DNA from: Cryobacterium sp. Y57 | GTDB taxonomy: Bacteria; Actinomycetota; Actinomycetes; Actinomycetales; Microbacteriaceae | Length of the DNA: 64,000 bases | Assembly (NCBI RefSeq): GCF_002929505.1 | Contig: NZ_PJJL01000070.1 | Coordinates: forward strand, 1-64,000 | Direction: 5' to 3' | Shown here: positions 4,038 to 34,750 of the stretch, in pieces | How the letters are laid out: each line of letters opens with the position of its first letter | Position numbering within the stretch: the stretch's first letter is position 1 | Notes under the pieces: generated by a model | Seen by the model: the letters and a program-made list of their open reading frames with translations, nothing else | Told to the model about the DNA's origin: nothing | The model's database searches: none | Position numbers and translations under genes: made by a program

Positions 4038-5261
4038 TTATTTCGACGCAGCGCTGGGGACACCTGCAATGGCGGCGACGGTTCCGTGGGCCAGGGTGAG
4101 CAATAGCTCGGTTCCGACCGGGGAATCATCGGCGCGGCGCAGTACGAGGCCATCAGGCAGTTGGGCAATCGCGTAACCACGGTCCAGGGTGCCCTGGGGC
4201 GAGAGGGCGCGCAGCTGGGAGCGCAGTTCCACCACGGCGGCCTCGGCACGCTCGAGAATGCGCCCGGTCAGTTCGGCGCCGCGCGCAACGTAGCGGGTGA
4301 GGTCTTCGCTGCGGGAGTCGATGATCCAGCGCGGGTCGACGAGCACCGGCCGACTGCGCAACTGCGAGATTCGATCGATTTCCGACGAGAGGATGCCCGT
4401 GAGCCGGCTGCTGAGACGCGCCCGGGCCTGCTGCACCCGGTTCAGCTCGTCGCTGACGTCGGGAACGACGCGCTTGGCGGCATCCGTCGGGGTGGACGCG
4501 CGCAGGTCGGCCACCTCGTCGAGCAGCGGACGGTCGGCTTCGTGCCCGATCGCGCTCACCAGCGGCGTCACACAAGCGGCCGCGGCGCGCACCAGGCTTT
4601 CCTCGCTGAAGGTGAGCAGGTTCTGAAAGTCGCCGCCGCCGCGCGCGACGATGATCACGTCGACCTCGGGATCAGCATCAAGACGCGCGATGGCACTGGT
4701 GACCTCGCCAACGGCGCGATCACCCTGCACGGCGGCGTGAGCGACCCGAAAGTTGACGGCCGGCCAGCGCAGCTGGGCGTTGCGAATGACGTCTTTCTCG
4801 GCGTCGGAATCTTTTCCGGTCACGAGGCCGATGCAGTGCGGCAGAAACGGCAGGCGCTTCTTGCGGGAGGCGTCGAACAGACCCTCGCTCGCGAGTTGCT
4901 TGCGCAGCCGTTCCAGCCGCTCGAGCAGGTCACCGAGCCCGACGTGGCGCATGTCGAAGGCCTGCATGGTGAGCGTGCCGCCCTTGACCCAGAAGTTGGG
5001 CTTGACCAGCGCGACGACGCGGTCACCCGCCTTGAAGTCGGCGGTGAGTTTGGCGCGCACCGACGACCAGATCGTGAAACTTACCGTGGCATCTTCGGAG
5101 AGGTCCTTGAGCTTGCCGTAGACGTTGCCGCCGCTTGCGCCCCACTGGGTGATCTCACCCTCGACCCAGACCATGCCGAGGCGTTCGATGTAACCGCGAA
5201 TCTTGCCCGAGAGCAGGGCGACCGGCCACGGTGCTTCCACGGTGGCGGGGGCGTCCGTCAT
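4038..5261 (-). CDS. xseA: Exodeoxyribonuclease VII large subunit
   Basis: Catalytic subunit of exonuclease VII. The 407-residue protein has an N-terminal OB-fold (VWVEGEITQWGASGGNVYGKLKD, residues about 30-52), then the nuclease domain with the conserved ARGGGDFQNLLTFSEE and SAIGHEADRPLLDEVADLRASTPTDAA blocks, and a helical C-terminus that binds XseB. The ATG at 5261 begins MTDAPATVEAPW; the frame stays open upstream only because it runs antisense to ispH. It is the first gene of the minus-strand operon and diverges from ispH with 84 bp between starts. Confidence 0.96.
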   Translation of the reverse strand: MTDAPATVEAPWPVALLSGKIRGYIERLGMVWVEGEITQWGASGGNVYGKLKDLSEDATVSFTIWSSVRAKLTADFKAGDRVVALVKPNFWVKGGTLTMQAFDMRHVGLGDLLERLERLRKQLASEGLFDASRKKRLPFLPHCIGLVTGKDSDAEKDVIRNAQLRWPAVNFRVAHAAVQGDRAVGEVTSAIARLDADPEVDVIIVARGGGDFQNLLTFSEESLVRAAAACVTPLVSAIGHEADRPLLDEVADLRASTPTDAAKRVVPDVSDELNRVQQARARLSSRLTGILSSEIDRISQLRSRPVLVDPRWIIDSRSEDLTRYVARGAELTGRILERAEAAVVELRSQLRALSPQGTLDRGYAIAQLPDGLVLRRADDSPVGTELLLTLAHGTVAAIAGVPSAASK

Positions 5262-5345
5262 GCGGTGGTCCTGGGTGTTGTGGTGGCTGTGGGCACAGTC
5301 GGATCCTCCCAGATTTCTTCGATCGTGCGTGCGTAGACTGAGGCG

Positions 5346-6437
5346 GTGAACACCAGCGCGCACACTACAAGCAAGCCTCCCATTGTCGGCCTGGGTATGC
5401 CGCGCATTCCCAGTGCTCGCAACAGACTCAAGGATACCCCGGTGGTCGGACAGAAGCGCGTGCTGCTCGCCGCCCCGCGCGGGTATTGCGCCGGGGTCGA
5501 CCGTGCGGTCATCGCGGTCGAGAAAGCGCTCGAGCACTACGGCGCCCCGGTTTACGTGCGCAAGCAGATTGTGCACAACGTCCACGTGGTTTCCGAACTC
5601 GAAAATCTGGGTGCGATCTTCGTCGACGAGGTCGATGAGGTGCCGCACGGCGCGCACATCGTCTTCAGCGCCCACGGCGTCTCACCGGCCGTTGTCGATG
5701 CGGCTGCCGCGCGCGGCCTGCAGGCCATCGACGCCACCTGCCCGCTGGTGACCAAGGTGCACCGCGAAGCCGTGCGCTTCGCCCGCGACGATTTTCAGAT
5801 TCTGCTGATCGGCCACGAAGGCCACGAAGAGGTCGAGGGTACCGCCGGCGAGGCACCCGAGCACACCACCCTGGTCGGCAGCCCGGAGGAAGCCGACACG
5901 GTCGTCGTGCGCGACCCGGACCGCGTGGTCTGGCTGTCGCAGACCACGCTGAGTGTCGACGAGACCATGGAGACCGTGCGCCGGTTGCGGGCGCGTTTTC
6001 CCAACCTGCAGGATCCGCCCAGCGACGACATCTGCTATGCCACCCAGAACCGCCAGGTCGCCATCAAGAAGGTCGCCCGCGACTCCGACCTGGTGATCGT
6101 GGTCGGTTCCGCCAACTCGTCCAACTCGGTGCGGCTGGTCGAGGTGGCCCTGGAATACGGTGCCAAGGCCGCGTACCGCGTCGACTTCGCAAGCGAGGTC
6201 AAACAGGAGTGGCTCGACAATGCGGCGACCGTAGGGGTGACGAGTGGGGCATCCGTTCCCGAAGAACTTGTCGATGAACTGCTCGAAGCGCTCGCCGATG
6301 CCGGTTACCGCGACGTCGAGCAGGTCAAGACCGCCCAGGAAGACCTCATCTTCTCGCTGCCCAAGGAACTGCGCAAAGACCTCTCCGGCGAAATGGACAC
6401 CCGTGCCTTCGGCGGTCGCGCCGCCCCGGCCGAGTAG
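5346..6437 (+). CDS. ispH: 4-hydroxy-3-methylbut-2-enyl diphosphate reductase
   Basis: Last enzyme of the MEP isoprenoid pathway, reducing HMBPP to IPP and DMAPP with a [4Fe-4S] cluster. The 363-residue protein carries the three cluster cysteines at about C48 ([12 protein letters not shown]), C132 ([11 protein letters not shown]) and C230 ([11 protein letters not shown]); the E-x-T-S-A-type active-site stretch [11 protein letters not shown] also fits. The chosen start is GTG at 5346; an ATG at 5397 is possible because the first about 30 residues are not conserved in the family. Its final codons GCC GAG TAG form the first unit of an 18-bp tandem repeat. Confidence 0.96.
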
Positions 6438-13989: not shown

Positions 13990-13993
13990 CGTA

Positions 13994-14018
13994 ACGTGGT
14001 GGAGTTCCGCTTCAACGT
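13994..14018 (+). repeat. ychF 3'-end core repeat, copy 2
   Basis: 25 bp matching the ychF end and, with the following AG, encoding VVEFRFNV and a TAG stop in GC-rich codons (GAG TTC CGC TTC AAC GTG TAG). It lies directly behind the truncated DUF6493-like gene. It looks more like the genome's native ychF terminus than the one now fused to ychF. Confidence 0.8.
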
Positions 14019-14115
14019 GTAGAGGGCATGCCTGTGGCGACAAGAAAGATACAGTCGGAGTGCCGATTCTGATTGTGGTGCCGCATCCCCTCCAAACGAC
14101 GTGGTAGGTGTCAGA

Positions 14116-16158: not shown

Positions 16159-16235
16159 AGCGGAGGCTGCCCTCGTTCTCAATTGGACTGTAGGGCGAGA
16201 GCACAGTCAGTTATCTGACGTTGATCGGTGACGAA

Positions 16236-16260
16236 ACGTGGTGGAGTTCCGGTTTGACGT
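16236..16260 (+). repeat. ychF 3'-end core repeat, copy 3
   Basis: 25 bp, 22 of 25 identical to copy 2 (ACGTGGTGGAGTTCCGG then TTTGACGT). The stop codon is lost (CTGG follows). It separates the SDR module from the higBA remnant. Confidence 0.75.
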
Positions 16261-16297
16261 CTGGCTTTATTGACGCTGAACGTTATGTAGTACTTTC

Positions 16298-17274: not shown

Positions 17275-17753
17275 GTCGGGCACGAGTGATCATCTAGACC
17301 ACGTCCCACGTCCCGTAAATTGACTGCGTTTCGCGCTCCGCGGCATGGTCGACATTCTGCACAGCTCTCGGCAGAGCTGGGGACGGCGACGGCGACGTGG
17401 TGGAGTGACGCTTCGACGTTTAGTTCAACGGCGATGCTGATGTCGGCATGCCGCCGAAAAGCAGGGCGGTGCGCAGCACCCCGATACACATCCGCTTTGC
17501 CGCGGTTGGACCGAACTGAAGCTACAACCTCGACTGCTCGACCAAATCGAGATTGAAAACACTGAGTCGGGTTGAGACGCCAGCCGTGGCTGCACCTCGA
17601 TTTTTGTTCATAATCACGATTCCCCCTTCACGTTTGCCCGGTATCGGGCCACACGCGTCCCCGTCCACCCGTATCGCGTGCGACGCAGACCACACCCCAG
17701 GCCGACCGCGGTGGAGTGCTGAACTCACGGCGGAGCGGTGGCACAATGGGCGA
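17275..17753. other. Right end of the island and upstream region of the HhH-GPD gene
   Basis: 479 bases without a convincing gene. It contains ychF-end repeat copy 4 at 17395-17419. Beyond it no ychF-like sequence recurs, so the island's right boundary is probably near 17420. The open frame leading into the HhH-GPD gene from 17553 is not conserved-looking and has no start signal. Confidence 0.5.
17395..17419 (+). repeat. ychF 3'-end core repeat, copy 4
   Basis: 25 bp, 22 of 25 identical to copy 2, preceded by ACGGCG so that the match to ychF extends upstream (ACGGCGACGTGGT). In the ychF frame it reads D-G-D-V-V-E-stop-R-F-D-V-stop: one codon has mutated to TGA, then the natural TAG. Taken as the outermost right-hand attachment-like site. 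Confidence 0.8.
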
Positions 17754-18591: not shown

Positions 18592-19395
18592 TTAGACCAG
18601 TTTCGAAATGCGGCTCAGCACCCGCTCCGGAACTGCCTGGCGCGGCACCTCTCCCACCAGAAAATCACCAACCGGCAGCGTGTCGGTGTCGTTCGACCAG
18701 AAGTCCGTGCCGATCACCGCTCCGCGGAGCGCACTGTCGTGCAGCTCGACCCGATCGTCGTGCCGCTGGCCGAGCGCCCACTGGTAGTGGTCGGTCACGT
18801 TGGTGATCGGCGAGTACGTCGACAGCGGTATCGGTTCGGTGCCGAAAGCCGATTCGCGGTCGTCGAGCAACACCGCGATCAACGGCAGCGCGGCGAATCC
18901 GCGCAGCCAGTCGGCGACATACATGGATGCGTTTTCGGCAGTATCGGCGTCGAGCCCCGACACGTCGGCCGACCCCGAAAACGGGTGCGTTCGCGCCAGC
19001 CACTGCATTGGTGACGGAATCTGCAGCACGACCGGCACCCGCTGAGTCTGGCTCAGAACGGTGACCAGTTCGATCACGGACGCCGTCGTTTCGGCATCAC
19101 CCAACAGGGTGCGGAGGGCATAACCGGTGCGGGACTTGGCGCCCATTGCGGTTTGCAGAGCGGGATCAGATGCGACCCGGTGTGCATAGAACCGGTCGAG
19201 ACTGACCAGCGCCAGATCGGACTTGAGAACGCCCTGAACCTGGCCGAAGAAATTCGCGTATGCCATGGGTTCCTGCCACGGCACGGGCTTACCCTGCAAA
19301 AAAACGGATTGGGCATAATCGTGACTATCCAACACCACAGCCCGACTGCGGCCCGAAGGTGGCTCGGCCAGAAGCTCATGGAGCGAAAGTGTCAT
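18592..19395 (-). CDS. Putative fifth (epsilon) subunit of an acetophenone carboxylase-type enzyme
   Basis: A 267-residue (about 29 kDa) soluble protein with no motif I recognise. It follows the HyuB-like gene in the same direction and has roughly the size of Apc5, the loosely bound fifth subunit of acetophenone carboxylase in Aromatoleum (about 34 kDa; recalled). That assignment is from position and size. Features seen: SLHELLAEPPSGRSRAVVLD at the start, YADWLRGFAALPLIAVLLDDRE-like central core. ATG at 19395 with AGGGAG upstream. An intrinsic terminator lies in the 89-bp gap before it, so it is probably made in smaller amounts than the four core subunits. Confidence 0.55.
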   Translation of the reverse strand: MTLSLHELLAEPPSGRSRAVVLDSHDYAQSVFLQGKPVPWQEPMAYANFFGQVQGVLKSDLALVSLDRFYAHRVASDPALQTAMGAKSRTGYALRTLLGDAETTASVIELVTVLSQTQRVPVVLQIPSPMQWLARTHPFSGSADVSGLDADTAENASMYVADWLRGFAALPLIAVLLDDRESAFGTEPIPLSTYSPITNVTDHYQWALGQRHDDRVELHDSALRGAVIGTDFWSNDTDTLPVGDFLVGEVPRQAVPERVLSRISKLV

Positions 19396-19416
19396 GGTGT
19401 CTCCCTGTAATCGATT

Positions 19417-19473
19417 AAAAAAGTGACCCGTGGCTGCGAGGCAGCCAGGAGACGACCTCGCAGCCACGGGTCA
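19417..19473 (-). terminator. Intrinsic terminator/attenuator between carboxylase subunits 4 and 5
   Basis: Perfect inverted repeat with arms 19424-19441 and 19456-19473 (18 bp: TGACCCGTGGCTGCGAGG and its complement) and a 14-base loop. On the minus strand the stem is followed within two bases by a run of six T (19417-19422). This is a textbook Rho-independent terminator, yet it precedes the fifth gene of the cluster by about 20 bases, implying partial read-through. Confidence 0.9.
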
Positions 19474-19484
19474 GAAAGGACAGG

Positions 19485-21818
19485 TCAGGATTTGTGCACG
19501 GTCTCTTCGCCGTACTTCTGCTCGAGTTCGCGTACCCGCGCCTCAAGCTTGCTGATTTTCAGTACTCGGCGGTCAGGAACCATGATGAGTGGCAGATCTT
19601 TGATCTTGCCCTTGACCCGCTCGGGCTCGATTTTGCCCCAGTGCGTCGCCAACAGTTCCTCGTCGTTGTCCTGTCCCCACGAACCGAAATAGAGCAGGTC
19701 CTTGGGCGGCTCTTCTTGAACGAACTCCGCAACGAACTCCTTGTACGGCTTTCCGCGGCTGATCCGATCCTGGCGCATCTGTGCCCGCAGCCGGATCGTT
19801 TCTTCTTCGTGCACCACGAAGGTGTCTGGTTCCCAGACGACGCCGTAGATGTTCGTGGCGACATGGGCCGAGATCCGGTCCAGTTCCAGGTCAGTCACGA
19901 CGAGTTCAGGGTCGCGCTCCAGCACGTCGCCGTAGCCGCCACCGGCGCCCTGGGCGATCATGTACAGCTCGCCCTCCTTCGCCACGTCGAACTGCAGCCC
20001 CATGTGACCGGACTGGTAATCGCCGCCCTCAAAAGGCTGCTCGTTCATGACGCGTTCCATCGACAGGTTGAACTGCGACGGGTCTTTCTTGATGATGTCG
20101 TAGATGTTGATGTTTTTGACCATGGCCAGAGGGTACGTCGGGCATCCGTACCCTCCGAACATGCCCGGAACCGAGGAGAACTTCGATCCAGAGGTGACGG
20201 TCATGAAACCCCAGCTCGGTGTGCCGCGTGAGGCCACCATCATCTCGTAACCCATACCGCCGCGAAACTTTCCGAAGCCCTGGTTGTCGCGCACCAGCCG
20301 CTTGCTGACCAACTGCAGAAACGGAACCTCCTCTTCCATGACTTCCTGCTCGCCGAGGTCGGCCATGGCGCAGAATAACGGCGCTACGGCATTTTCACCG
20401 TCGCGGAATGCTTTCGCCCCGCCGCCCATGCCGTTGAGGTCAGCGCACAGGTTGCCCACTTGCTCACCGTTCTGCGTGGTGCCGCCCCAGAGAAAATCGT
20501 TGATCTGGTTGAACCAGGGCGCGACGACGTTCGAGTATTTCTGCGGCGATGAGAACTGCATCTTGGCGAAGGCCGACTGCAGGGCGGAGAAGCCGCGGAA
20601 GGATGCCTGCAGCGACTGGCCGACGGGCGCGTCGTACCCGGCATCCGCCCAGGTATGTTCCTCCGTGATGATTTCAATCGGCGACAACGCTCCAGTGCTG
20701 CGAGGCAGGTCGGGCCACCAGTACGAGAGAACGGCCTGGGACATGAACGATTTCGTCGACGCGAGCGGTGAGTTGAGGGCCCGATTGAGAATCTCGGGGC
20801 CGGTACCGGTGAGGTCGATAATCATTCGTTCGCCCTTGACGGTGATCTTGCAGGCGAACTTGATCAGAATGTTCTCCTTGAGCGTGGAGTCCACGAACTG
20901 ATTGAAGGTGACGGTGCCATCGGGCAACTCGGCGATGCGGCGGCGTACCTCAGTCTCGACGTCCTCGACGGTGACGCGAAGGGACGCGACGAAGGTCTCC
21001 TGTCCCACCTCGTCGATGAGCCGGTCGACGGTGTCCATGATGCGCCGGGTAGCGCCCATCTTTACCTTGATGTCGGCGAGCATGAGCTTCGGGTCGCGCG
21101 TGGAGTGCTGCAAGAACGTGAGCAGGTCGCGACGCAGATGGCCCTTCTCCACGATCTTGATCGGCGAGGCCCGCAGACCGTCATCGAATGGTGACTCCGA
21201 ACCCGACGGCATGCCACCAGGTTCACACGCTCCGTTCTCGCCTTCGTGGATGGTCGCACCCACCCAGGCGATGATGATTCCGTCGCGCATGACCGGCACC
21301 AGCATCGACTGGTCGGTGTTGTGCACCATGCCGAAGCGGGAGTCGTTGTGGAAGAAACCGTCACCCGGGTTGATGCCGACGGTGGGCTCATCCTTCCAGT
21401 TCTTCATGATGTAGCGGATGGGGTGGTGCAGCACCGCGGAGAAGGCGATCACGCCGCGGTTGGAGAGATACGTGACATCGCCCTCGGCGGTGTAGACCGC
21501 GCAGGAGAGGTCGGCCCACTTCGCTCCGGGCGCCGCGCCCATGCTCTCGCACATCTCAAAGGCCTCATCAAGTGCACCGGCCAAGCGTTTGCGAATCCGG
21601 TCGACCTCGAGCGGGTCGATACCCTGCGCGATGCACTCTTCTTCATAGGCGGTGCGCGGCATGATCTCGTGAGTACGCATGATGGCCGGGTCTGGTCCGA
21701 GAAAAAGAGTGGTCTCGTCCATGAACTGGTCGACCCACTGCTGTTCCTGGTCGGTGAGTAGCTGGGACGCGTCGTCGTTTCCGCTGGTGGGCACGAACTT
21801 GTCAGTTGTCAATGTCAT
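19485..21818 (-). CDS. HyuB-like carboxylase subunit (acetone/acetophenone carboxylase type)
   Basis: A 777-residue (about 87 kDa) member of the hydantoinase B/oxoprolinase superfamily. In acetone and acetophenone carboxylases this subunit holds the site where the phosphorylated substrate meets carboxyphosphate. Characteristic stretches are DGFFHNDSRFGMVHNTDQ (metal/substrate loop), IHEGENGACEPGGMPSGSES, RALNSPLASTKSFMSQAVL and GGMGYEMMVASRGTP. The C-terminal about 80 residues (LRAQMRQDRISRGKPYKEFV; LEARVRELEQKYGEE) are a carboxylase-type extension absent from simple hydantoinases. ATG at 21818. The presence of a zinc-ribbon gamma partner nearby supports a carboxylase over a hydantoinase. Confidence 0.85.
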   Translation of the reverse strand: MTLTTDKFVPTSGNDDASQLLTDQEQQWVDQFMDETTLFLGPDPAIMRTHEIMPRTAYEEECIAQGIDPLEVDRIRKRLAGALDEAFEMCESMGAAPGAKWADLSCAVYTAEGDVTYLSNRGVIAFSAVLHHPIRYIMKNWKDEPTVGINPGDGFFHNDSRFGMVHNTDQSMLVPVMRDGIIIAWVGATIHEGENGACEPGGMPSGSESPFDDGLRASPIKIVEKGHLRRDLLTFLQHSTRDPKLMLADIKVKMGATRRIMDTVDRLIDEVGQETFVASLRVTVEDVETEVRRRIAELPDGTVTFNQFVDSTLKENILIKFACKITVKGERMIIDLTGTGPEILNRALNSPLASTKSFMSQAVLSYWWPDLPRSTGALSPIEIITEEHTWADAGYDAPVGQSLQASFRGFSALQSAFAKMQFSSPQKYSNVVAPWFNQINDFLWGGTTQNGEQVGNLCADLNGMGGGAKAFRDGENAVAPLFCAMADLGEQEVMEEEVPFLQLVSKRLVRDNQGFGKFRGGMGYEMMVASRGTPSWGFMTVTSGSKFSSVPGMFGGYGCPTYPLAMVKNINIYDIIKKDPSQFNLSMERVMNEQPFEGGDYQSGHMGLQFDVAKEGELYMIAQGAGGGYGDVLERDPELVVTDLELDRISAHVATNIYGVVWEPDTFVVHEEETIRLRAQMRQDRISRGKPYKEFVAEFVQEEPPKDLLYFGSWGQDNDEELLATHWGKIEPERVKGKIKDLPLIMVPDRRVLKISKLEARVRELEQKYGEETVHKS

Positions 21819-21868: not shown

Positions 21869-23995
21869 TCAGTCGCTCAGTAGCCATACCGCGCCCTGAC
21901 TGGTCGGTTCCAGCCGCCAGCCGGGCTCGACCAGATAGGTGGTGTTCTCGGTCGTGACGATCGCCGGTCCGTGGATCACGTATTCGTGTTTGAGCGCCTC
22001 GGCGTCGTAAACGGGGGTGTCGACCGCGCCGGCGATACTCGTGAAATGCACCGACCGATGCGAGACCGGTTCCGGCTTGATCTTCTCCCCGCCGGTGTGA
22101 ATCGACTCGAATGCAATGACTTCGCCCTCGATATAGGACGCTACGCGAATGGTCTGCGCACGCACGCCCGCCTCCGGCGCCTGGGTACCCTCGCCGTAGC
22201 GTTCGCCAAAGAGCTCGGAGAACGTCTTGATCAGGTGCAGCACGTCGGCGACTCCATTGACCCGGTTGATGGTGAAGGCGACGGCCGTGGTGACGAGCTG
22301 GTTGCCGTAGCGCATGTCCATTTCGAGGCGATAGCGCACGTCAGCGCGGTCGTAGCCCTGACGTACGAGGTCTTCGGCGCCCTTCGCTTCGAGCTCCTCG
22401 ATGTACCCGTTGAGCGCCTCGTACTGGGCGTAGAGGCTGCGCTTGATCGGTTCGTAGAGCACGACGTAGGCGCTGCGTTCGTGAATGTGGAGCGGACGCA
22501 TGTTGCCGGCCCCGAGCGCGGAGAACACTGAAGCGAACGGCGGAAACAAGATACGGCTGATGCCGGCGCTCGCCGCGATGCCGCAGGCATGCAGCGGGCC
22601 GTTACCACCGTAGGCGAGCATCGTGTAGTCCTCGATCAGTCCGCCGCGCGAGCGCAGCTCCTTTTCGATGCCGATCGCCATCTGTTCGTCGACAGTCTTC
22701 TTGATCACCTTGGCAACCTCGACCGCGTCCAGGTTGAGCTCGTCGCTGAGCGTCTCATCGATGACATAGATCGAACGCTTCTTGTTGAGGGTGATGTGCC
22801 CGTTGGCGTAGTTGTCCGGGTCGAGATAGCCGAGCACCAGGTCGGCGTCGGTAACCGTTGGGCGCAGGCCCCCGCGGTCGTAGCAGGCCGGGCCCGGGTC
22901 GCTTCCAGCTGACTCGGGCCCGATCTGGAGGGCATGGTGAATGCGGTTATAGGCGGCGATAGATCCGCCACCGGCGCCGAGCGTGTTGAGGTGGATCATC
23001 GGCGCGGAGACCATCCAGCGACCAATGGTGGGCTGGAAGTCGTAGTGCCGTACGCCGCCCTCTGGCACCAGGCCGATGTCGAACGAGGTGCCCCCCATGT
23101 CCATTGACACTACGTCGCCGAGGCCGGTCGACTCCGCGAGGTGCTGGGCCGCCCCGACACCGGCGATCGGTCCGGAGTGAATCGTCTGCAGGGCATCCGT
23201 GGAATTGGGCTGCGCCATACCGCCCGAGTTATGGATGACCAGCATCGGCTTCTCATAGCCGGAGTCGCGCAGGTTGTTGGAGAGCTGGTTGAGCGCATGG
23301 AACATGGTCTGGTGCAGAAAAGCATCGACGATGGTGGCCATAGCCCGCACATATTCGCCTTTGCGCCCCGATACTTGGCTGCTGAGAAGCACCGGAATAG
23401 ACCCGAGCTCGTGCGCGGGGTACTCATCGAGAATGATTTCCAGAATGCGATCCTCGTGCACCGAGTTCTCGGTGGCGTTGGTCAGGGCAATGACGATGGC
23501 CTCGGCGCCGTTGTCGACGAGTTCGCGCACCTGCGTGCGCACGTCGTCGTACATGATCGGCACGAGCACCTCCCCAACCGAATCAATGCGTTCCTTCACC
23601 GAGCGGATGAGCTGGCGTGGCACGAGCGGTTCGGGGCGTTGGGCGTCCGGCATGTCGCCCTGTTTGGCCCCGTCGAGTCCTTCGCCGTAGCCGCGGCCAC
23701 GGGAGAGCGGGATGGTGTCTTCGAAGCCGTGGGTGACGATTGCCGCGACCCGTGGGCCCTTGCCCTCGATCAGGGCATTGGTGCCCAGCGTCGTGGCGTA
23801 GCGCACCGAGTCGACCTCTTTGAGTGCCGTCTCGCGGCTGATCCCAGCCCGCTCGCAGGCCCGGTCCAGGGCCTCGTTGAAACCGAGCGCCAGGTTGTGG
23901 TGCGTGGTGAGCGCTTTGGATTCGATGTAGACGTCATCCCAGACGAAGAAACAATCGCTGAACGTGCCGCCGATGTCTACCGAGATTCGTTTCAC
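21869..23995 (-). CDS. HyuA-like carboxylase subunit, larger (about 77 kDa)
   Basis: A 708-residue hydantoinase A/oxoprolinase family ATPase. The actin-like fold's two phosphate-binding loops are seen as VDIGGTFSDCFF (near residue 6) and MDMGGTSFDIG, with RYATTLGTNALIEGKGP and AYGGNGPLHACGI as family markers. In this enzyme class such subunits phosphorylate the ketone or bicarbonate with ATP. The GTG at 23995 begins two bases after the gamma-subunit stop and has GAAGG upstream, so translation is likely coupled. Together with the shorter HyuA-like gene at 24500 it gives the paired HyuA arrangement that distinguishes acetophenone-type from acetone-type carboxylases. Confidence 0.87.
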   Translation of the reverse strand: MKRISVDIGGTFSDCFFVWDDVYIESKALTTHHNLALGFNEALDRACERAGISRETALKEVDSVRYATTLGTNALIEGKGPRVAAIVTHGFEDTIPLSRGRGYGEGLDGAKQGDMPDAQRPEPLVPRQLIRSVKERIDSVGEVLVPIMYDDVRTQVRELVDNGAEAIVIALTNATENSVHEDRILEIILDEYPAHELGSIPVLLSSQVSGRKGEYVRAMATIVDAFLHQTMFHALNQLSNNLRDSGYEKPMLVIHNSGGMAQPNSTDALQTIHSGPIAGVGAAQHLAESTGLGDVVSMDMGGTSFDIGLVPEGGVRHYDFQPTIGRWMVSAPMIHLNTLGAGGGSIAAYNRIHHALQIGPESAGSDPGPACYDRGGLRPTVTDADLVLGYLDPDNYANGHITLNKKRSIYVIDETLSDELNLDAVEVAKVIKKTVDEQMAIGIEKELRSRGGLIEDYTMLAYGGNGPLHACGIAASAGISRILFPPFASVFSALGAGNMRPLHIHERSAYVVLYEPIKRSLYAQYEALNGYIEELEAKGAEDLVRQGYDRADVRYRLEMDMRYGNQLVTTAVAFTINRVNGVADVLHLIKTFSELFGERYGEGTQAPEAGVRAQTIRVASYIEGEVIAFESIHTGGEKIKPEPVSHRSVHFTSIAGAVDTPVYDAEALKHEYVIHGPAIVTTENTTYLVEPGWRLEPTSQGAVWLLSD

Positions 23996-23997
23996 GG

Positions 23998-24453
23998 TCA
24001 GTGTCCTTCGTTTTGGCGCGAGTGGGCGTGGGGTGCCACGGAGTCGAACCGGGCGCTGAGGTCGGCCTCGGCGTTTTCGCCAGGACCATAATTGACGACC
24101 TCTTCGGGGTTGCCCCCGTGGGCAACCCACTTTTCGCGCAGCGAGTCGATGTCCCACAGCATGTCAACAGTCGGCGGATGCCCCGGCGGCAGATATTCGG
24201 CTTCGATCTGGGTTCCGCAGCTGGGGCAGTAGAACTCCAGGATGCGGCAGAAGGTGGGGTCGGGAGAGAATGTGAATTCGTACTTCTCCGGGTCGATCAC
24301 GGGAGGATGAATCTCTTGGGGGTCTCGGTCGTAGACCAGGGTGCCCTCTTTATAATTGCCGCGCGCATCGCCGAAGTCGTGGGCGCAGACGCGGCAGATC
24401 CATCGTTCCGTGTCGAGGTCGATGAGCAGGTATTCGGTCATGGGAACGCGCAT
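23998..24453 (-). CDS. Small zinc-ribbon subunit of acetone/acetophenone carboxylase
   Basis: A 151-residue (about 17 kDa) protein typical of carboxylase gamma/alpha-prime subunits. Cysteines in paired CxxC form occur at C20-C23 (WICRVCAHDFGDARG) and C76-C79 (FYCPSCGTQIE), a likely zinc ribbon. The stretch YKEGTLVYDRDPQEIHPPV is a family hallmark. This subunit is not found with hydantoinases or 5-oxoprolinases, so it is the strongest evidence for ketone carboxylation. ATG at 24453 (GGAAGG ten bases upstream); an in-frame ATG four codons later is possible. Confidence 0.85.
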   Translation of the reverse strand: MRVPMTEYLLIDLDTERWICRVCAHDFGDARGNYKEGTLVYDRDPQEIHPPVIDPEKYEFTFSPDPTFCRILEFYCPSCGTQIEAEYLPPGHPPTVDMLWDIDSLREKWVAHGGNPEEVVNYGPGENAEADLSARFDSVAPHAHSRQNEGH

Positions 24454-24499: not shown

Positions 24500-26356
24500 T
24501 TAGAGCGTGTCGGCAAGTTGCAGGTCGCCGGCGGTCGATACCGTGAGGGTCCAGCCGAACGGCACCCGCGCGGTGAAGAACGGGCCCTCGACGATGGCCG
24601 GTCCGGCTGCCGTCGCACCGGACTTCTGCTCGTCGAGGTGGTAGACGGCCACGGTGTCAATCTGGGTGGGAGTAGAGCGCACCTGTCGGGTTCCGGCGGC
24701 GACGGCGACGCTCGCTGGAGCGGGCGCTCCGTTGGCAATTTCCGGGTGCGGCAGCCGGAAGGTGGCCTTGAGGGCCAGGATCTCTTCGCCGTCTTCGACC
24801 CGGGTCGACCAGTCGAGTTGGCACTCGCTCAGGTCGTGTCCTTCTTGAAACATGTCCTTGCCGGCATCCGCTTGCAGTGCGGTGCGTACCACATCGATCT
24901 CGGCCGGTGAGAAGCTGGTGACGTTGGCTTCGTAGGACTGCGCGATGTCGGAGAAGCTGATGCCGTAGGCGGAGAACACTGCTGCGAGTCGCGGTACGAG
25001 TACCTGGCGTACGCGGGCTATGCGCGCGGCGCTGCAGGCGTTCATCGGGCCGCCGCCGCCGAACGCGGCGACCGTGGTGTCACCGGTTGCACTCACGAGG
25101 TCGGCGAAGGAGCGCGCCAGGTGGCTGGAATAGCTCGCTTCCATGAGAATCAGAGCCTCCTCGAGGCTGATCCCGAGCGGGTCGGCGACGGTCTTGATGA
25201 TGACCGCGCGCGACCGGTCAGCATCCAGTGCCATCTCGCCGTTCAGGTAGGTCGAAGGGTTGAGCACACCGAGCAGCAGGTTGACGTCGGTGATCGTGGC
25301 CGAGGTACCGCCGAAACCGAAGCAAGCCGGTCCGGGCGCCGCGCCCACGCTTTCCGGGCCGACGGTGATCTCGCCGTCGTGGACGGCGATGATCGAACTG
25401 CCGCCGACTCCGGTGGAACGCACGTTGCTCATCTCATAGGAGATGTCGACGCCCTGGATCGATCCGCGCCGGTCGACGGCGATCGTGGAGTTGGCGACGG
25501 CGCCGACATCCGTAGTCGTGCCGCCGACATCGATCATGAGCACGTTGTCGAGACCGTAGGCCTCCGCGAGGGCACGCGTACCCTCGAGCCCGCCGCGCGG
25601 TCCGGAGGAGTAGGTCTTGAGTGCGACCGACTTGGCGACGCGGGAGGAGGCGCCATCGTTGCGGTAGATCAACAGCGGGTTCTTGACCTTGTAGGCGCGC
25701 AGCCGGTGTTCGGCACTGTAGAGAAAACGCTCGACCGTTGGATGCAGGAAAGAGTTCAGAATGCCCGACCAGACCTGGCGCTGCCTGGAGGTGTCTGTGG
25801 CGAACTCGCGGGAGAACAGGATGGGGACAGATCCAAGCAGGTGCCGCGGAAAATTCTTCAGCATTGTTCGTTTGAACAAGTGCTCGCGTTCGGCGCTCTG
25901 GCCGGCGACGACGAGACGTTCGGCCCCGGCGGTGGTCAGCCGGTTGATCTCGGCGACGAGCTGCTGGGCTAGGTCCTCCGGGGTCCCGGCGGCGGCGATG
26001 ATGCCAACGCGGGCGCCGATCAGATCGTTGAAGAGCCTGGCCGTCTCTTCCGAGGTGCCGAGCGAGTCTGGCAGAGTGGGATCGTCGGTGATCAGGCCGA
26101 TCAGCGGGCCCTTGCGCTGCACAAGCGCGTTGGTGCCCTGCGTCGATGAATAGCGGATGTGCTGGGTCGAGTGCAGCAGACCGGCAAGGTTGGCGTCACC
26201 GTAGATCTGCGCTGACGCCTTCGTCATGGCGTCGAAGAGACACTGGGACAGATCGACCGGGGTGGTGAGGGTCTTGGTGAACGTGAAATCCGTGCCGCTG
26301 GCGACGACAATGTCGGTGAGGGTTCCACCATTGTCAATGTTGATCAATCGTTCCAT
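24500..26356 (-). CDS. HyuA-like carboxylase subunit, smaller (about 67 kDa)
   Basis: A 618-residue HyuA/oxoprolinase-family subunit and first gene of the carboxylase operon. Phosphate loops: INIDNGGTLTDIVV at residues 5-18 and MIDVGGTTTDVGAV in the middle; also YSSTQGTNALVQRKGP and AAFGGGGPMNACSA. It is about 90 residues shorter than its paralogue at 21869. ATG at 26356 with AAAGGAG upstream; the frame continues upstream but crosses the palindromic control region. Intergenic distance to the zinc-ribbon gene is 46 bp. Confidence 0.87.
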   Translation of the reverse strand: MERLINIDNGGTLTDIVVASGTDFTFTKTLTTPVDLSQCLFDAMTKASAQIYGDANLAGLLHSTQHIRYSSTQGTNALVQRKGPLIGLITDDPTLPDSLGTSEETARLFNDLIGARVGIIAAAGTPEDLAQQLVAEINRLTTAGAERLVVAGQSAEREHLFKRTMLKNFPRHLLGSVPILFSREFATDTSRQRQVWSGILNSFLHPTVERFLYSAEHRLRAYKVKNPLLIYRNDGASSRVAKSVALKTYSSGPRGGLEGTRALAEAYGLDNVLMIDVGGTTTDVGAVANSTIAVDRRGSIQGVDISYEMSNVRSTGVGGSSIIAVHDGEITVGPESVGAAPGPACFGFGGTSATITDVNLLLGVLNPSTYLNGEMALDADRSRAVIIKTVADPLGISLEEALILMEASYSSHLARSFADLVSATGDTTVAAFGGGGPMNACSAARIARVRQVLVPRLAAVFSAYGISFSDIAQSYEANVTSFSPAEIDVVRTALQADAGKDMFQEGHDLSECQLDWSTRVEDGEEILALKATFRLPHPEIANGAPAPASVAVAAGTRQVRSTPTQIDTVAVYHLDEQKSGATAAGPAIVEGPFFTARVPFGWTLTVSTAGDLQLADTL

Positions 26357-26443
26357 GAGCGCTCCTTTGCGGTGCAGTTGTGAGTGACCGAGGCTCCCGA
26401 GGAAACCGCTCCCGTAAGAATGACCCCGCGTTCCCGCGGTGGC

Positions 26444-26462
26444 GTGTCCCACATTGGGACAC
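26444..26462. promoter_or_regulatory. Perfect 19-bp palindrome, probable operator
   Basis: GTGTCCCACATTGGGACAC: two perfect 8-bp arms around CAT, in the 167-bp divergent region between the carboxylase operon (start 26356) and the AcoR-type regulator (start 26524). It lies 88 bp upstream of the carboxylase start codon and 62 bp upstream of the regulator's. Fis-type HTH dimers bind such sites, so it is the natural candidate for the regulator's operator. Confidence 0.7.
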
Positions 26463-26523
26463 CGTGCGGCTGGCGTTCGCCGGTCGCAGGGGGCATGCTT
26501 GCAGAGTCCACAAGGGAGTAGAT

Positions 26524-28377
26524 ATGCACAGAGTTGCCGAACGGCGAAGCAGGATTGCCGCCGCTCGCGCCGATTTTCTTCGCTCCGGCCACGCCGAAAC
26601 CCAATCGGTTCCCGGATTGGTGGCGGCTTCCTGGCAGCGATCCTTTTTAGCCGGCGTCGATGCCGTGTCGTCGCAGGCGGTGTTTCAGAGCGACCTGGAT
26701 CTCACCGGTCGGCTGGTGCGGTGCTCCGAACCGGTCATCGCCCGACTGAGCGACGAGATGGCCCAGATGCCGCTATCGATCGTGCTGACCGACTATAAGG
26801 CGCGAATTCTCAGTCGCTCCGAAACCGACACGACGATCGGAACCCTGCTCGACGAGGTGTCGCTCGCGCCGGGCTTCAACTATGCCGAAACAAACGTGGG
26901 AACCAACGGCATCGGCACCGTACTCGAGTCGGGCCAGTCGCTGTACATCGTGGGACCCGAACATTTTTTGGAGCACCTGCAGCCCTTCGCGTGCGCCGGG
27001 AGCCCCATTCGTGACCCGCTCACCGGCCGGGTGGAGGGGGTGCTCGACATCAGCTGCCTAAGCGAGGATGCCAGCCCCCTCATGCATTCCCTGGTGCAGT
27101 CGGCCGCGCATGAAATAGAGCGCAACCTGCTCATCGACCGCAGCCAGCGGCAACAGGCTCTGTTTGAGGCGTATGTGCGGGTGGATTCTCGCACCCGCGG
27201 TGCCGTCATGGCGATCGGCGGTACCGTCGTGATGGGCAACACCGTGGCGCAGAGCCAGTTCTCTCCCGATGAACAGTGGACCATCCACCAACACGCCCGA
27301 TACCTGATGATCTCATCGGGTCGGCCGGTCGATGAGATCGAACTGTCGTCGGGCAAGATCGTGCAGATTCGGGGCAAGCGCGTCGTCGTCGGCCCCGACA
27401 TCGTTGGTATCGTCGTGGTCGTCGAGATCAAATCCGAACGGGCACGCCTCCCGGCCCGAGAGTCAGGTCTGACCCTGTCACCAAAGCGCGGGTGGCGGGT
27501 GCATGAACCCGTGCGGAGCGCTGCAGCGGCCATCGTTCACGATGTGTCATCCCTGCTCGGCAAACGCGCCTCAAGCAGCCTGGTCACCGCGCTGACTGCT
27601 GGGGCGGCCCTGCTCGTGATGGGGGAGGCCGGCGGCGGCAAGGTTTCGCTCCTGGCCGAACTCTATCGCCAGATCGTTCCGCTGGGTCGCAGTGTCGTGT
27701 TCGGCGCTGAAGCGCTCAACGAGAACGGCCTGCAATCCCTATTGGAGAACGATCTGCTCAGCGTCGGGGCTCCGCCCACGCTATACATTTTTCGCAATGT
27801 CGATCGGTTGAGCGCGGCGGTCACCGAAGAAGTAGAGGCATTTCTCGTCGCCCGGGAGGCTCGCGCCGACTCTGCCGGCATCGCCGTGACCGTGTCGCAA
27901 CCCGATCTCCATGTCGATCTCGCCGTCAATCGCGCGTATACGAGCCTACTGCACCATTTTGAAACCTCCGTCACTGTGGCGCCCCTGCGGCATCGCATCG
28001 ACGACCTGCCCGACATCGTCACCCAGGTCCTCGCCCGACGAGCCGGATTGCGCCCCGCCACCGTCAGCGCCGGCGCTATGCGAGTGATTTCCCGCTACCC
28101 CTGGCCGGGCAACATTCGGCAGCTCGAAGAAGCGCTCGATATCGCCCTGCTCACCCGCCCGGTCGGTGCCATCCAGGCTGAAGACCTGCCCGCGTACTGC
28201 CACGGCGTTGCGCCCCGGCTACTGACGGCGCTGGAAGCGGGGGAGCGTGACCTCATTGTCGGCGCACTGCACAAAGCCGAAGGCAACCGGATGCGCGCGG
28301 CGGAGTCCCTGGGAATCGCTCGGTCGTCGCTCTATCGCAAACTGAAAAGCTTCGGCATCACGGTCACCGACTCGTAG
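26524..28377 (+). CDS. AcoR-type transcriptional activator lacking the sigma-54 contact motif
   Basis: A 617-residue regulator. Residues about 20-190 match the AcoR N-terminus with a GAF sensor (NYAETNVGTNGIGTVLESGQ; VEGVLDISCLSEDASPLMHS). A degenerate AAA+ domain follows: the Walker A reads GEAGGGKVS, and the GAFTGA loop that contacts sigma-54 is absent, as expected in actinobacteria, which lack that sigma factor. The C-terminus is an intact Fis-type HTH (NRMRAAESLGIARSSLYRKL). ATG at 26524 with AAGGGAG upstream. Divergent from the carboxylase operon with a shared palindrome; most likely its ligand-responsive regulator. Confidence 0.85.
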   Translation: MHRVAERRSRIAAARADFLRSGHAETQSVPGLVAASWQRSFLAGVDAVSSQAVFQSDLDLTGRLVRCSEPVIARLSDEMAQMPLSIVLTDYKARILSRSETDTTIGTLLDEVSLAPGFNYAETNVGTNGIGTVLESGQSLYIVGPEHFLEHLQPFACAGSPIRDPLTGRVEGVLDISCLSEDASPLMHSLVQSAAHEIERNLLIDRSQRQQALFEAYVRVDSRTRGAVMAIGGTVVMGNTVAQSQFSPDEQWTIHQHARYLMISSGRPVDEIELSSGKIVQIRGKRVVVGPDIVGIVVVVEIKSERARLPARESGLTLSPKRGWRVHEPVRSAAAAIVHDVSSLLGKRASSSLVTALTAGAALLVMGEAGGGKVSLLAELYRQIVPLGRSVVFGAEALNENGLQSLLENDLLSVGAPPTLYIFRNVDRLSAAVTEEVEAFLVAREARADSAGIAVTVSQPDLHVDLAVNRAYTSLLHHFETSVTVAPLRHRIDDLPDIVTQVLARRAGLRPATVSAGAMRVISRYPWPGNIRQLEEALDIALLTRPVGAIQAEDLPAYCHGVAPRLLTALEAGERDLIVGALHKAEGNRMRAAESLGIARSSLYRKLKSFGITVTDS

Positions 28378-33302: not shown

Positions 33303-33520
33303 TCATATGGACGATGCGGGAGAGTTCGGCGCGAAGGCGTACGAACACCGAAGGAGCAATCCTCCCCGACAATCTCTCAGGTACTCGTACCGCATCGAAC
33401 TGGCCACTCTGAAAAGTAGATTGAACACGCCCTGCGTGTTTCACAATCTCGCCCACGGTGAAAGTCAGTGCGTTGGCGCTGGTGAAGCTCTCAGGCACGA
33501 GCGACAGAGGGGGAGTTCCC
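33303..33520 (+). promoter_or_regulatory. Tandem glycine riboswitch upstream of gcvT
   Basis: Two glycine aptamers in series. The first (about 33309-33418) shows GGGAGAG, ACCGAAGGAGCAA, CTCTCAGG and a closing CCACTCTGAAAAG. The second (about 33421-33516) shows CTGGTGAAGCTCTCAGGCA and GACAGAGGGGG. This order and spacing is the gcvT-type glycine riboswitch, which normally turns on the glycine cleavage operon when glycine is high. It directly precedes gcvT. Boundaries are approximate. Confidence 0.9.
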
Positions 33521-33521
33521 A

Positions 33522-33541
33522 CGAGGCTCAACCGAGCCTCG
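33522..33541 (+). terminator. Hairpin in the riboswitch expression platform
   Basis: CGAGGCTCAACCGAGCCTCG: an 8-bp perfect stem with a 4-base loop immediately after the second aptamer and 45 bases before the gcvT start codon. No T-run follows, so control may act on translation or through Rho rather than by intrinsic termination. Confidence 0.6.
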
Positions 33542-33586
33542 CACACAAGCGGCCTTGCCTGTTCGGCCCTGTCACCCGGAGAACTC

Positions 33587-34750
33587 ATGACCTCGGCCGA
33601 TTCCAGCACCCCCGGCTCCACTGATTCACGAAATACGGAGCGGTTCTCGCCGCTGCACCAGGCGCACGTCGACGCCGGTGCGAGCTTCACCGACTTCGCC
33701 GGCTGGCAGATGCCGGTGCGCTATTCGAGTGATCTCGCCGAGCACCACGCCGTGCGCGCCGAAGCCGGCCTGTTCGACCTGTCGCATATGGCCGAGATTC
33801 TGGTCGAGGGCCCGGATGCCGCTTCCTACCTCGACTCTGCGCTGGCCGGCAAGCTCTCGGTCATCGAGCTGTGGCAGGCCAAGTACAGCTTGCTCCTCGC
33901 TGAGCACGGCGGCATCATCGACGACCTCGTCGTCTACCGCCTCGGCGATACCAGGTTTCTTATCGTCGCCAACGCCGGCAATCGATTTGCCGCTTTCGAT
34001 GCGCTGCGCGCCCGTGCCGACGGCTTCGCCGTGAGCGTCGTCGACCAGAGCGACGATTATGCCCTCATCGCCGTGCAGGGCCCCAACGCCCTCGCCATTC
34101 TTATTGCCACCGAGGGCGTCACCGACCTCGGCACCGACCTGCACTTCATGAAGTATTACCGCATCACGGATGCTTCCTTCCTCGGTCAGCCACTTCTGGT
34201 GGCTCGCACCGGCTACACCGGTGAAGACGGCTTCGAGCTCTACCTCGAGGCCGCGCGAGCCCGAGAACTGTGGGATGCACTCATGAGCGCCGGCGCTGAG
34301 AACGGGCTCGTTCCGGCCGGTCTCGCCAGCCGCGACACCCTCCGGCTCGAAGCCGGCATGCCGCTCTACGGTCACGAGCTCACCCTGAACACCTTCCCGG
34401 CGCAGGCGGGCCTTGGCCGGGTGGTCAACCTGGGCAAGGAGCACGACTTCGTCGGCCGCGCCGCGATCGAGGCAGGGCCGAAGGCGGGGGTATCCGTTTT
34501 GGTGGGTCTGATTGCCGCCGGCAAGCGTGCCGGGCGCGCCGACTACGAGATTTTTCGCAGCCTCGACGCCGAGACTTCCGACGGCGTCATCACGAGCGGC
34601 GCGCTCTCACCAACCCTCGGCTACCCGATCGCCATGGCCTACGTCACCCCCGACCTCGCCCGCCTCGGCACCGAGGTGTACGTCGACGTGCGTGGCACCC
34701 GCCTTCCCGCCACCGTTACCTCGCTTCCGTTCTATAAGCGCGTCAAATAG
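33587..34750 (+). CDS. gcvT: Glycine cleavage system T protein (aminomethyltransferase)
   Basis: Transfers the methylene group from aminomethyl-lipoyl-H protein to tetrahydrofolate, releasing ammonia. The 387-residue protein has FTDFAGWQMPVRYSSDLAEH and LFDLSHMAEI near the start, RTGYTGEDGFELY in the folate domain and ASRDTLRLEAGMPLYGHEL near the C-terminal domain, all normal. ATG at 33587 is the first in-frame ATG behind the riboswitch. First gene of gcvT-gcvH-gcvP; its transcription is expected to rise with glycine through the upstream riboswitch. Confidence 0.97.
   Translation: MTSADSSTPGSTDSRNTERFSPLHQAHVDAGASFTDFAGWQMPVRYSSDLAEHHAVRAEAGLFDLSHMAEILVEGPDAASYLDSALAGKLSVIELWQAKYSLLLAEHGGIIDDLVVYRLGDTRFLIVANAGNRFAAFDALRARADGFAVSVVDQSDDYALIAVQGPNALAILIATEGVTDLGTDLHFMKYYRITDASFLGQPLLVARTGYTGEDGFELYLEAARARELWDALMSAGAENGLVPAGLASRDTLRLEAGMPLYGHELTLNTFPAQAGLGRVVNLGKEHDFVGRAAIEAGPKAGVSVLVGLIAAGKRAGRADYEIFRSLDAETSDGVITSGALSPTLGYPIAMAYVTPDLARLGTEVYVDVRGTRLPATVTSLPFYKRVK

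What the first reader, a model, noticed from the sequence alone, without database searches (positions are those of the whole stretch)
19417..19473. Intrinsic terminator placed before the fifth carboxylase gene
An 18-bp perfect stem followed by T6 stands between subunit 4 (HyuB-like) and subunit 5. In the known enzyme the fifth subunit is not part of the stable core complex, so an attenuating terminator would set its lower dose. It is an unusually explicit stoichiometry device.
Basis: partly seen in the sequence, partly recalled or inferred. Interest (0 to 1): 0.6.

Follow-up and report, generated by a model that had tools for sequence, protein, structure and literature searches.

The report
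Conserved hairpin before fifth carboxylase gene
A very strong RNA hairpin sits between the fourth and fifth genes of a bacterial ketone-carboxylase-like operon; relatives keep the hairpin but mostly not the run of T that makes it look like a standard terminator, so it is probably a leaky end-marker that lets the cell make less of the fifth subunit, a known kind of control found here at a new place.

Summary
In detail: on the operon (minus) strand, 11 nt after the HyuB-like (beta) stop, lies an 18-bp perfect stem, then C and T6. The genome is a Cryobacterium. The fifth protein's predicted fold best matches ApcE, the loose epsilon subunit of acetophenone carboxylase.

Comparison adds the main point. 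A strong hairpin occupies this junction in 46 of 49 actinobacterial loci (14 named genera), with changing sequence and compensatory changes, while two other junctions of these operons have none (0 of 26, 0 of 38). The T-run is not conserved: 3 or more T in the next 8 nt in 14 of 46, T6 only here. The spacer before the fifth gene is short and shows no TANNNT box placed to serve it (0 of 46). The fifth gene has the lowest codon adaptation of the five in 14 of 15 Cryobacterium loci and in the window.

Best reading: a leaky 3'-end hairpin closes the core message, and epsilon comes from the minority that continues. "Lower dose" has indirect support; "intrinsic terminator" fits this window, not the conserved element. 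Termination and protection from mRNA decay cannot be told apart from sequence. Known kind of device, new place.

The parts
19424..19473 (-). intercistronic hairpin: 18-bp perfect outer stem (arms 19456-19473 and 19424-19441) plus inner pairs, 22 pairs, -45.8 kcal/mol
   Evidence: strong hairpin at this junction in 46 of 49 loci; compensatory changes
19417..19422 (-). T6 run after the stem (one C between); not conserved in relatives
19448..19453 (-). loop hexamer GTCTCC, complementary to the fifth gene's Shine-Dalgarno; seen in one Cryobacterium subclade
19400..19406 (-). Shine-Dalgarno AGGGAGA of the fifth gene
   Evidence: sequence
18592..19395 (-). fifth gene, ApcE-like epsilon subunit (267 aa)
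   Evidence: no Pfam, NCBIfam or PDB sequence hit; fold match to ApcE 9fou, E 8.6e-5, 9% identity
19485..21818 (-). beta subunit, HyuB-like (777 aa)
   Evidence: PF02538; best PDB relative is the acetophenone carboxylase delta chain 5l9w, E 3.5e-83
21869..24019 (-). alpha subunit, HyuA-like (716 aa)
   Evidence: PF01968, PF05378, PF19278
23998..24453 (-). gamma subunit, small protein (151 aa)
   Evidence: PF08882 acetone carboxylase gamma
24500..26356 (-). alpha' subunit, HyuA-like (618 aa)
   Evidence: PF01968, PF05378
26380..28377 (+). divergent Fis/AcoR-type regulator, start codon uncertain
   Evidence: PF02954 HTH_8 and PF25601 AAA lid

Best explanation
The hairpin is a leaky 3'-end element inside the five-gene carboxylase operon. 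Transcription from upstream makes the alpha'-gamma-alpha-beta message. At the hairpin most transcripts acquire a 3' end, by partial termination (helped by T6 in this strain; U-poor or Rho-assisted in relatives), and the hairpin then shields that end from 3' exonucleases. The fraction that reads through supplies the fifth (epsilon) mRNA, which has its own Shine-Dalgarno and does not overlap beta. Net effect: core subunits in excess over the detachable epsilon subunit. Shown: the hairpin, its position, conservation, compensatory changes, absence at the two sister junctions measured, short spacer, lower epsilon codon adaptation. Inferred: that RNA ends form there, that read-through is partial, and that epsilon is less abundant.
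For: Strong hairpin (E <= -23) at the beta-epsilon junction in 46 of 49 loci with gaps under 300 nt (a 50th, Streptomyces L050, has a gap of 1184 nt and is set aside). Sister junctions with gaps of at least 25 nt: alpha-beta 0 of 26, alpha'-gamma 0 of 38 at E <= -20. By a near-perfect-stem score (>= 33): beta-epsilon 36 of 45 rows (L050 left out) against 5 of 49 in the 150 nt after epsilon. Shuffles of each junction: 32 of 2760 as good for the 46; 132 of 2880 with L043 and L102. Two Cryobacterium genomes, co-directional gaps of 70-130 nt: E <= -35 in 7 of 59, against 15 of 18 Cryobacterium beta-epsilon junctions and 31 of 48 over all genera. In their gaps of 60-160 nt, strong stems (score >= 33) mark 3' ends: convergent 14 of 33, divergent 0 of 36, co-directional 9 of 86. 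Compensatory changes in 5 of 21 pairs over 11 sequences, 0 of 500 shuffles as many. Hairpin end to start codon: median 32.5 nt, 40 nt or less in 32 of 46; TANNNT starting at least 18 nt before the start codon in 0 of 46 spacers. Epsilon has the lowest codon adaptation in 14 of 15 Cryobacterium loci and in the window, 0.548 against 0.608-0.655. In Streptomyces clavuligerus, highly structured 3' ends are mostly U-poor (353 of 535), and non-terminal ends are proposed to set transcript levels within a transcription-unit cluster (PMC8269248 passages).
Against: No RNA data. Hairpins are common at gene ends in these GC-rich genomes: E <= -23 in 16 of 59 co-directional gaps, and in the 100 nt after epsilon in 20 of 50 (7 of 50 at -35). 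Two junctions counted as strong are unremarkable against shuffles of themselves (z -1.3 in L055, -1.5 in L033). Three junctions lack it (L031 genes overlap by 4 nt; L043; L102) yet keep epsilon, so it is not essential. In Streptomyces clavuligerus the non-terminal ends are enriched in weakly structured ones, unlike this. Without a U-tract, termination in most relatives is uncertain; the title of a cited mBio 2014 paper (seen; paper not held) says mycobacterial polymerase requires one. Low codon adaptation could reflect epsilon's fast evolution rather than low dose. The loci are related, so counts are not independent.
Confidence: 0.55

Rival explanations
1. Purely post-transcriptional: the operon is transcribed through; an endonuclease cuts between beta and epsilon, and the hairpin protects the core mRNA from 3' decay (selective RNA processing and stabilisation).
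For: Hairpin conserved while the U-tract is not (14 of 46 with 3 or more T of 8). In Clostridium cellulolyticum only 5 of 33 such stem-loops had a U run, and their strength correlated with the transcript ratio (PMC4423207 section 7).
Against: The window itself has T6, the most T-rich tail of the 46. Other Cryobacterium 3'-end hairpins are also U-poor, so lack of U does not exclude termination.
Confidence: 0.25
2. Complete terminator plus a separate promoter for epsilon.
For: Hairpins of this class mark gene ends in Cryobacterium; 12 of 46 junctions have 46-97 nt between hairpin and start codon.
Against: Median 32.5 nt between hairpin and start codon, and a TANNNT box at least 18 nt before the start codon in none of 46 spacers. 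A promoter upstream of the hairpin, inside beta, was not tested.
Confidence: 0.1
3. Translational insulator or switch: the hairpin stops ribosomes coupling from beta to epsilon, and in the Cryobacterium subclade its loop GUCUCC pairs with the epsilon Shine-Dalgarno.
For: 7-8 bp loop-SD complementarity in 9 of the 11 subclade members, window included (5 and 6 bp in L021 and L024); loop invariant in 11 of 11 aligned.
Against: Outside the subclade only L054 reaches 7 bp or more; shuffled loops reach the observed length in 1-17% of trials for those 9 rows; changes in the SD are not matched by changes in the loop.
Confidence: 0.06
4. No function: a relic or chance GC-rich palindrome.
For: GC-rich junctions fold well by chance: 390 of 2880 shuffles reach -23 kcal/mol.
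Against: Conservation with compensatory change and junction specificity.
Confidence: 0.04

Closest known systems
Intercistronic stem-loops of SRPS operons (cip-cel cellulosome operon, Clostridium cellulolyticum; PMC4423207 abstract, outline and section 7)
   Same: Strong stem-loop at the 3' end of an upstream complex subunit inside an operon, mostly without a U run, proposed to set subunit ratios
   Different: No processing site or transcript ratio is known here; different phylum; a single junction found over 14 named genera
Non-terminal, highly structured transcript ends of Streptomyces clavuligerus (PMC8269248 passages)
   Same: Actinobacterial, GC-rich stem, U-rich or U-poor tail, located between genes of one transcription-unit cluster
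   Different: Those are mapped RNA ends; ours is predicted from sequence
I-shaped mycobacterial terminators (PMC12288462 passages)
   Same: Hairpin within 50 nt of the stop codon, without a poly-U tail in most relatives
   Different: Window copy has T6; cited titles disagree on whether such hairpins terminate; this one must be leaky if epsilon has no promoter of its own
Acetophenone carboxylase operon apcA-E of Aromatoleum aromaticum (PMC5214803 abstract and passages)
   Same: Gene order alpha', gamma, alpha, beta, epsilon; fifth protein with ApcE-like fold
   Different: The four core subunits score below the NCBIfam equivalog cut-offs; substrate unknown; whether apcD-apcE has a hairpin was not seen

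Membership tests
Canonical (L-shaped) intrinsic terminator | GC-rich stem followed at once by a U-tract | tested here: met
   window: C then T6; of 46 junctions with the hairpin only 14 have 3 or more T in 8 nt, so the conserved element as a class fails this
Canonical (L-shaped) intrinsic terminator | RNA polymerase releases RNA at the site | not testable with these tools
   needs 3'-end mapping or in vitro transcription
I-shaped (U-less) terminator | hairpin within 50 nt of the stop codon, no poly-U | tested here: inconclusive
   position met in 45 of 46 (L062 is the exception); U-poor in most relatives but not in the window
SRPS intercistronic stem-loop | strong stem-loop at the 3' end of an upstream gene inside an operon | tested here: met
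   46 of 49 loci; sister junctions 0 of 26 and 0 of 38; co-transcription itself is assumed from gene order
SRPS intercistronic stem-loop | endonucleolytic processing site and unequal abundance of flanking mRNAs | not testable with these tools
   only a proxy: epsilon codon adaptation lowest in 14 of 15 loci
Acetophenone-carboxylase-type operon | gene order alpha', gamma, alpha, beta, epsilon with matching domains | tested here: met
Acetophenone-carboxylase-type operon | fifth subunit with ApcE fold | tested here: met
   AlphaFold model pLDDT 90; top three PDB matches are ApcE 9fou, TMq 0.56-0.59, prob 1.00
Acetophenone carboxylase (NCBIfam equivalogs ApcA-D) | score over the curated cut-off | tested here: not met
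   ApcD 302 of 1500 bits, ApcC 537 of 1500, ApcB 136 of 250, ApcA 314 of 1250

The most novel reading that the evidence does not exclude
A structure-conserved, sequence-independent dosage element dedicated to the beta-epsilon junction of actinobacterial ketone-carboxylase-type operons, found over 14 named genera, that gives the loosely bound epsilon subunit a sub-stoichiometric dose; in one Cryobacterium subclade the loop also pairs with the epsilon Shine-Dalgarno, tying 3'-end formation to epsilon translation.
Probability: 0.12. Interest if true: 0.6.

Novelty: new member of a known kind. Interest (0 to 1): 0.4.

Why it matters
It is a clean natural test case for how GC-rich bacteria set subunit ratios inside an operon: one junction, one hairpin, many sequence variants with a T-run or without, plus natural junctions lacking the hairpin (L031, L043, L102). 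It could show whether U-poor hairpins terminate transcription or only protect mRNA in Actinobacteria. It also gives an independent, evolutionary hint that ApcE-type subunits work in less than one copy per core.

Tried and rejected
Dispersed palindromic repeat: rejected, one copy in the genome. Known structured RNA: no Rfam match there at gathering scores. Promoter after the hairpin: no TANNNT at least 18 nt before the start codon. A conserved strong hairpin also ending the operon after epsilon: score >= 33 in 5 of 49; E <= -23 in 20 of 50 within 100 nt; an earlier 150-nt count (33 of 52 at E <= -20) reaches into downstream coding sequence. Loop-SD pseudoknot as the general mechanism: essentially limited to one Cryobacterium subclade. 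Sequence search of the fifth protein in the PDB, Pfam and NCBIfam: nothing, solved only by fold. Papers joining 'acetophenone carboxylase' and 'terminator': 0. In the listings of searches I saw nothing on this junction; PMC6498646 (passages) mentions apc1-4 in Rhodococcus ruber without it. PMC9477822 (passages) gave no data on such an operon. Rows left out of the 50-locus count: copies of the own or of named loci (L001-L011, L013, L015, L018, L100, L101, L107, L108; judged by genome handle or by matching gap, hairpin and tail), the weak match L016, contig-end loci L058 and L063, and the distant beta loci L104-L106 (46-48% identity to our beta, no strong hairpin within 200 nt). The crude gene caller apparently placed the epsilon start elsewhere, so the window's own junction fell in its 160-300 nt bin. 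The codon reference (23 ORFs) includes some doubtful ORFs; one search used 14 genes.

Full report
What is there. The operon lies on the minus strand: alpha' (24500-26356), gamma (23998-24453), alpha (21869-24019), beta (19485-21818), fifth gene (18592-19395), with a divergent regulator at 26380-28377. Between beta and the fifth gene are 89 nt. The hairpin begins 11 nt after the beta stop codon, has an 18-bp perfect outer stem and 22 pairs in all (-45.8 kcal/mol), and is followed by C and T6; 28 nt separate its end from the ATG. 0 of 200 shuffles fold as well.

Is the fifth gene really the fifth subunit? By sequence it has no relative in the PDB even at E 1 and no Pfam or NCBIfam hit at E 0.1. 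Its model (mean pLDDT 90.1) matches three chains of ApcE (9fou) as the top three PDB matches, the only ones at E <= 0.001, at 8-10% identity. The core subunits match the Apc families but far below their equivalog cut-offs, so the substrate is open. In the known enzyme epsilon separates from the core on purification and is needed for activity (PMC5214803, abstract and passages).

Relatives. 13 of 60 genomes (own included; all hits in the same genus) have the fifth gene, 6 of 299 in a family sample and 2 of 396 in a phylum sample, own included in each. One scan of named genomes gave 45 loci; same-genus loci there are named Cryobacterium, so that is the genus. Of the distinct junctions, 50 had beta upstream and could be measured. 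Setting aside Streptomyces L050, where an alcohol-dehydrogenase-like ORF lies between beta and epsilon (its name is my reading), 46 of 49 have a hairpin of -23 kcal/mol or better. The three without are L031 (genes overlap), L043 and L102. The 46 include Cryobacterium, Arthrobacter, Paeniglutamicibacter, Pseudonocardia, Mycolicibacterium, Modestobacter, Rhodococcus, Corynebacterium, Gordonia, Pseudoclavibacter, Leucobacter, Kribbia, Brevibacterium and Sinomonas, some as metagenome bins; 18 of the 46 are Cryobacterium, so the counts are not independent. Between groups the stems share no sequence evident by eye; within the closest Cryobacterium group (11 sequences), 5 of 21 pairs show changes on both sides, 6 never vary, and 96.4% of cells pair; slid versions of the structure reach at most 2 such pairs and 45%.

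Controls. Two other junctions of the same operons have nothing comparable: alpha-beta 0 of 26 and alpha'-gamma 0 of 38 at -20 kcal/mol, among junctions of 25 nt or more; gamma-alpha genes overlap or nearly touch. Those junctions are shorter (25-88 nt), which favours the contrast, but z-scores against shuffles agree: between -1.5 and 1.8 at these, mostly -3 to -9 at beta-epsilon, with weak cases L055 (-1.3), L033 (-1.5) and none in L043. Shuffles of the junctions themselves: 32 of 2760 as good for the 46. In 700 kb of two Cryobacterium genomes, co-directional gaps of 70-130 nt reach -23 kcal/mol in 16 of 59 and -35 in 7 of 59; the Cryobacterium beta-epsilon junctions reach -35 in 15 of 18. Strong hairpins there are a mark of gene ends: score >= 33 in gaps of 60-160 nt, convergent 14 of 33, divergent 0 of 36, co-directional 9 of 86; by energy, convergent 18 of 27 and divergent 2 of 18 at -23. 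Against specificity: the 100 nt after epsilon also reach -23 in 20 of 50, and inside the window's beta gene 6 of 48 windows do. By stem score, however, the region after epsilon has 5 of 49 against 36 of 45 at beta-epsilon.

The T-run. By the criterion used for Streptomyces clavuligerus (3 or more U in 8 nt; PMC8269248 passages), 14 of the 46 junctions, window included, are U-rich and 32 are not; among the 18 Cryobacterium junctions 9 are. T6 is found only in the window, and the nearest relative has T4. Ordinary 3'-end hairpins in Cryobacterium are also U-poor. So the lack of T does not show that these are not terminators, and the presence of T6 here does not define the conserved element.

Mechanism. 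The spacer after the hairpin is too short for a normal promoter in most loci (40 nt or less in 32 of 46) and has no TANNNT box at least 18 nt before the start codon in any (0 of 46). If no promoter lies inside beta, which was not tested, epsilon must be read through the hairpin or released by processing. Both ways predict fewer epsilon than core transcripts. Codon adaptation agrees: epsilon lowest in 14 of 15 Cryobacterium loci (L033 is the exception) and in the window. This is indirect, since epsilon also evolves much faster (61-70% identity against 91-92% for the part of beta held, in L011-L015). I put partial termination with end protection first (0.55) and pure decay protection second (0.25).

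Known or new. Stem-loops that set subunit ratios inside operons are described (PMC4423207 abstract, outline and section 7; PMC5927463 abstract and outline), and so are structured U-poor transcript ends in Actinobacteria (PMC8269248 passages; PMC12288462 passages). This is a new, widely conserved member of that kind. No paper I found links it to this operon (searches, seen as listings; open-licence library only).

Noticed in passing
18592-19395 (-): The fifth protein has no detectable sequence relative in the PDB, but its predicted fold best matches ApcE (9fou, released Dec 2025) at 8-10% identity; actinobacterial ApcE proteins are thus a highly divergent branch.
   Followed up: yes
19448-19453 (-) and 19400-19406 (-): Loop GTCTCC of the hairpin is complementary to the fifth gene's Shine-Dalgarno; kept in one Cryobacterium subclade (7-8 bp in 9 of 11 members).
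   Followed up: partly
33307-33402 (+): Glycine riboswitch (Rfam RF00504, 65.9 bits) just upstream of an ORF that looks like gcvT (recalled) at 33458-34750.
   Followed up: no
26380-28377 (+): Regulator with Fis-type HTH and AAA lid but no sigma-54 interaction domain hit in Pfam; Actinobacteria lack sigma-54 (recalled), so how it activates transcription is open.
   Followed up: no
L050 about 4870-5919: In Streptomyces hygroscopicus an alcohol-dehydrogenase-like ORF (name from its residues, recalled) lies between the beta and epsilon genes.
   Followed up: partly
L104-L106, after the beta stop codon: Distant beta genes (46-48% identity to ours) are followed within about 65 nt by a different ORF whose start looks epsilon-like to me, without a strong hairpin.
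   Followed up: partly
about 13990-14019, 16230-16265, 17394-17420 (+): A similar motif ACGTGGTGGAGT..CGCTTC.ACGT, seen by eye, occurs three times between small or broken-looking ORFs, perhaps remnants of one mobile element.
   Followed up: no
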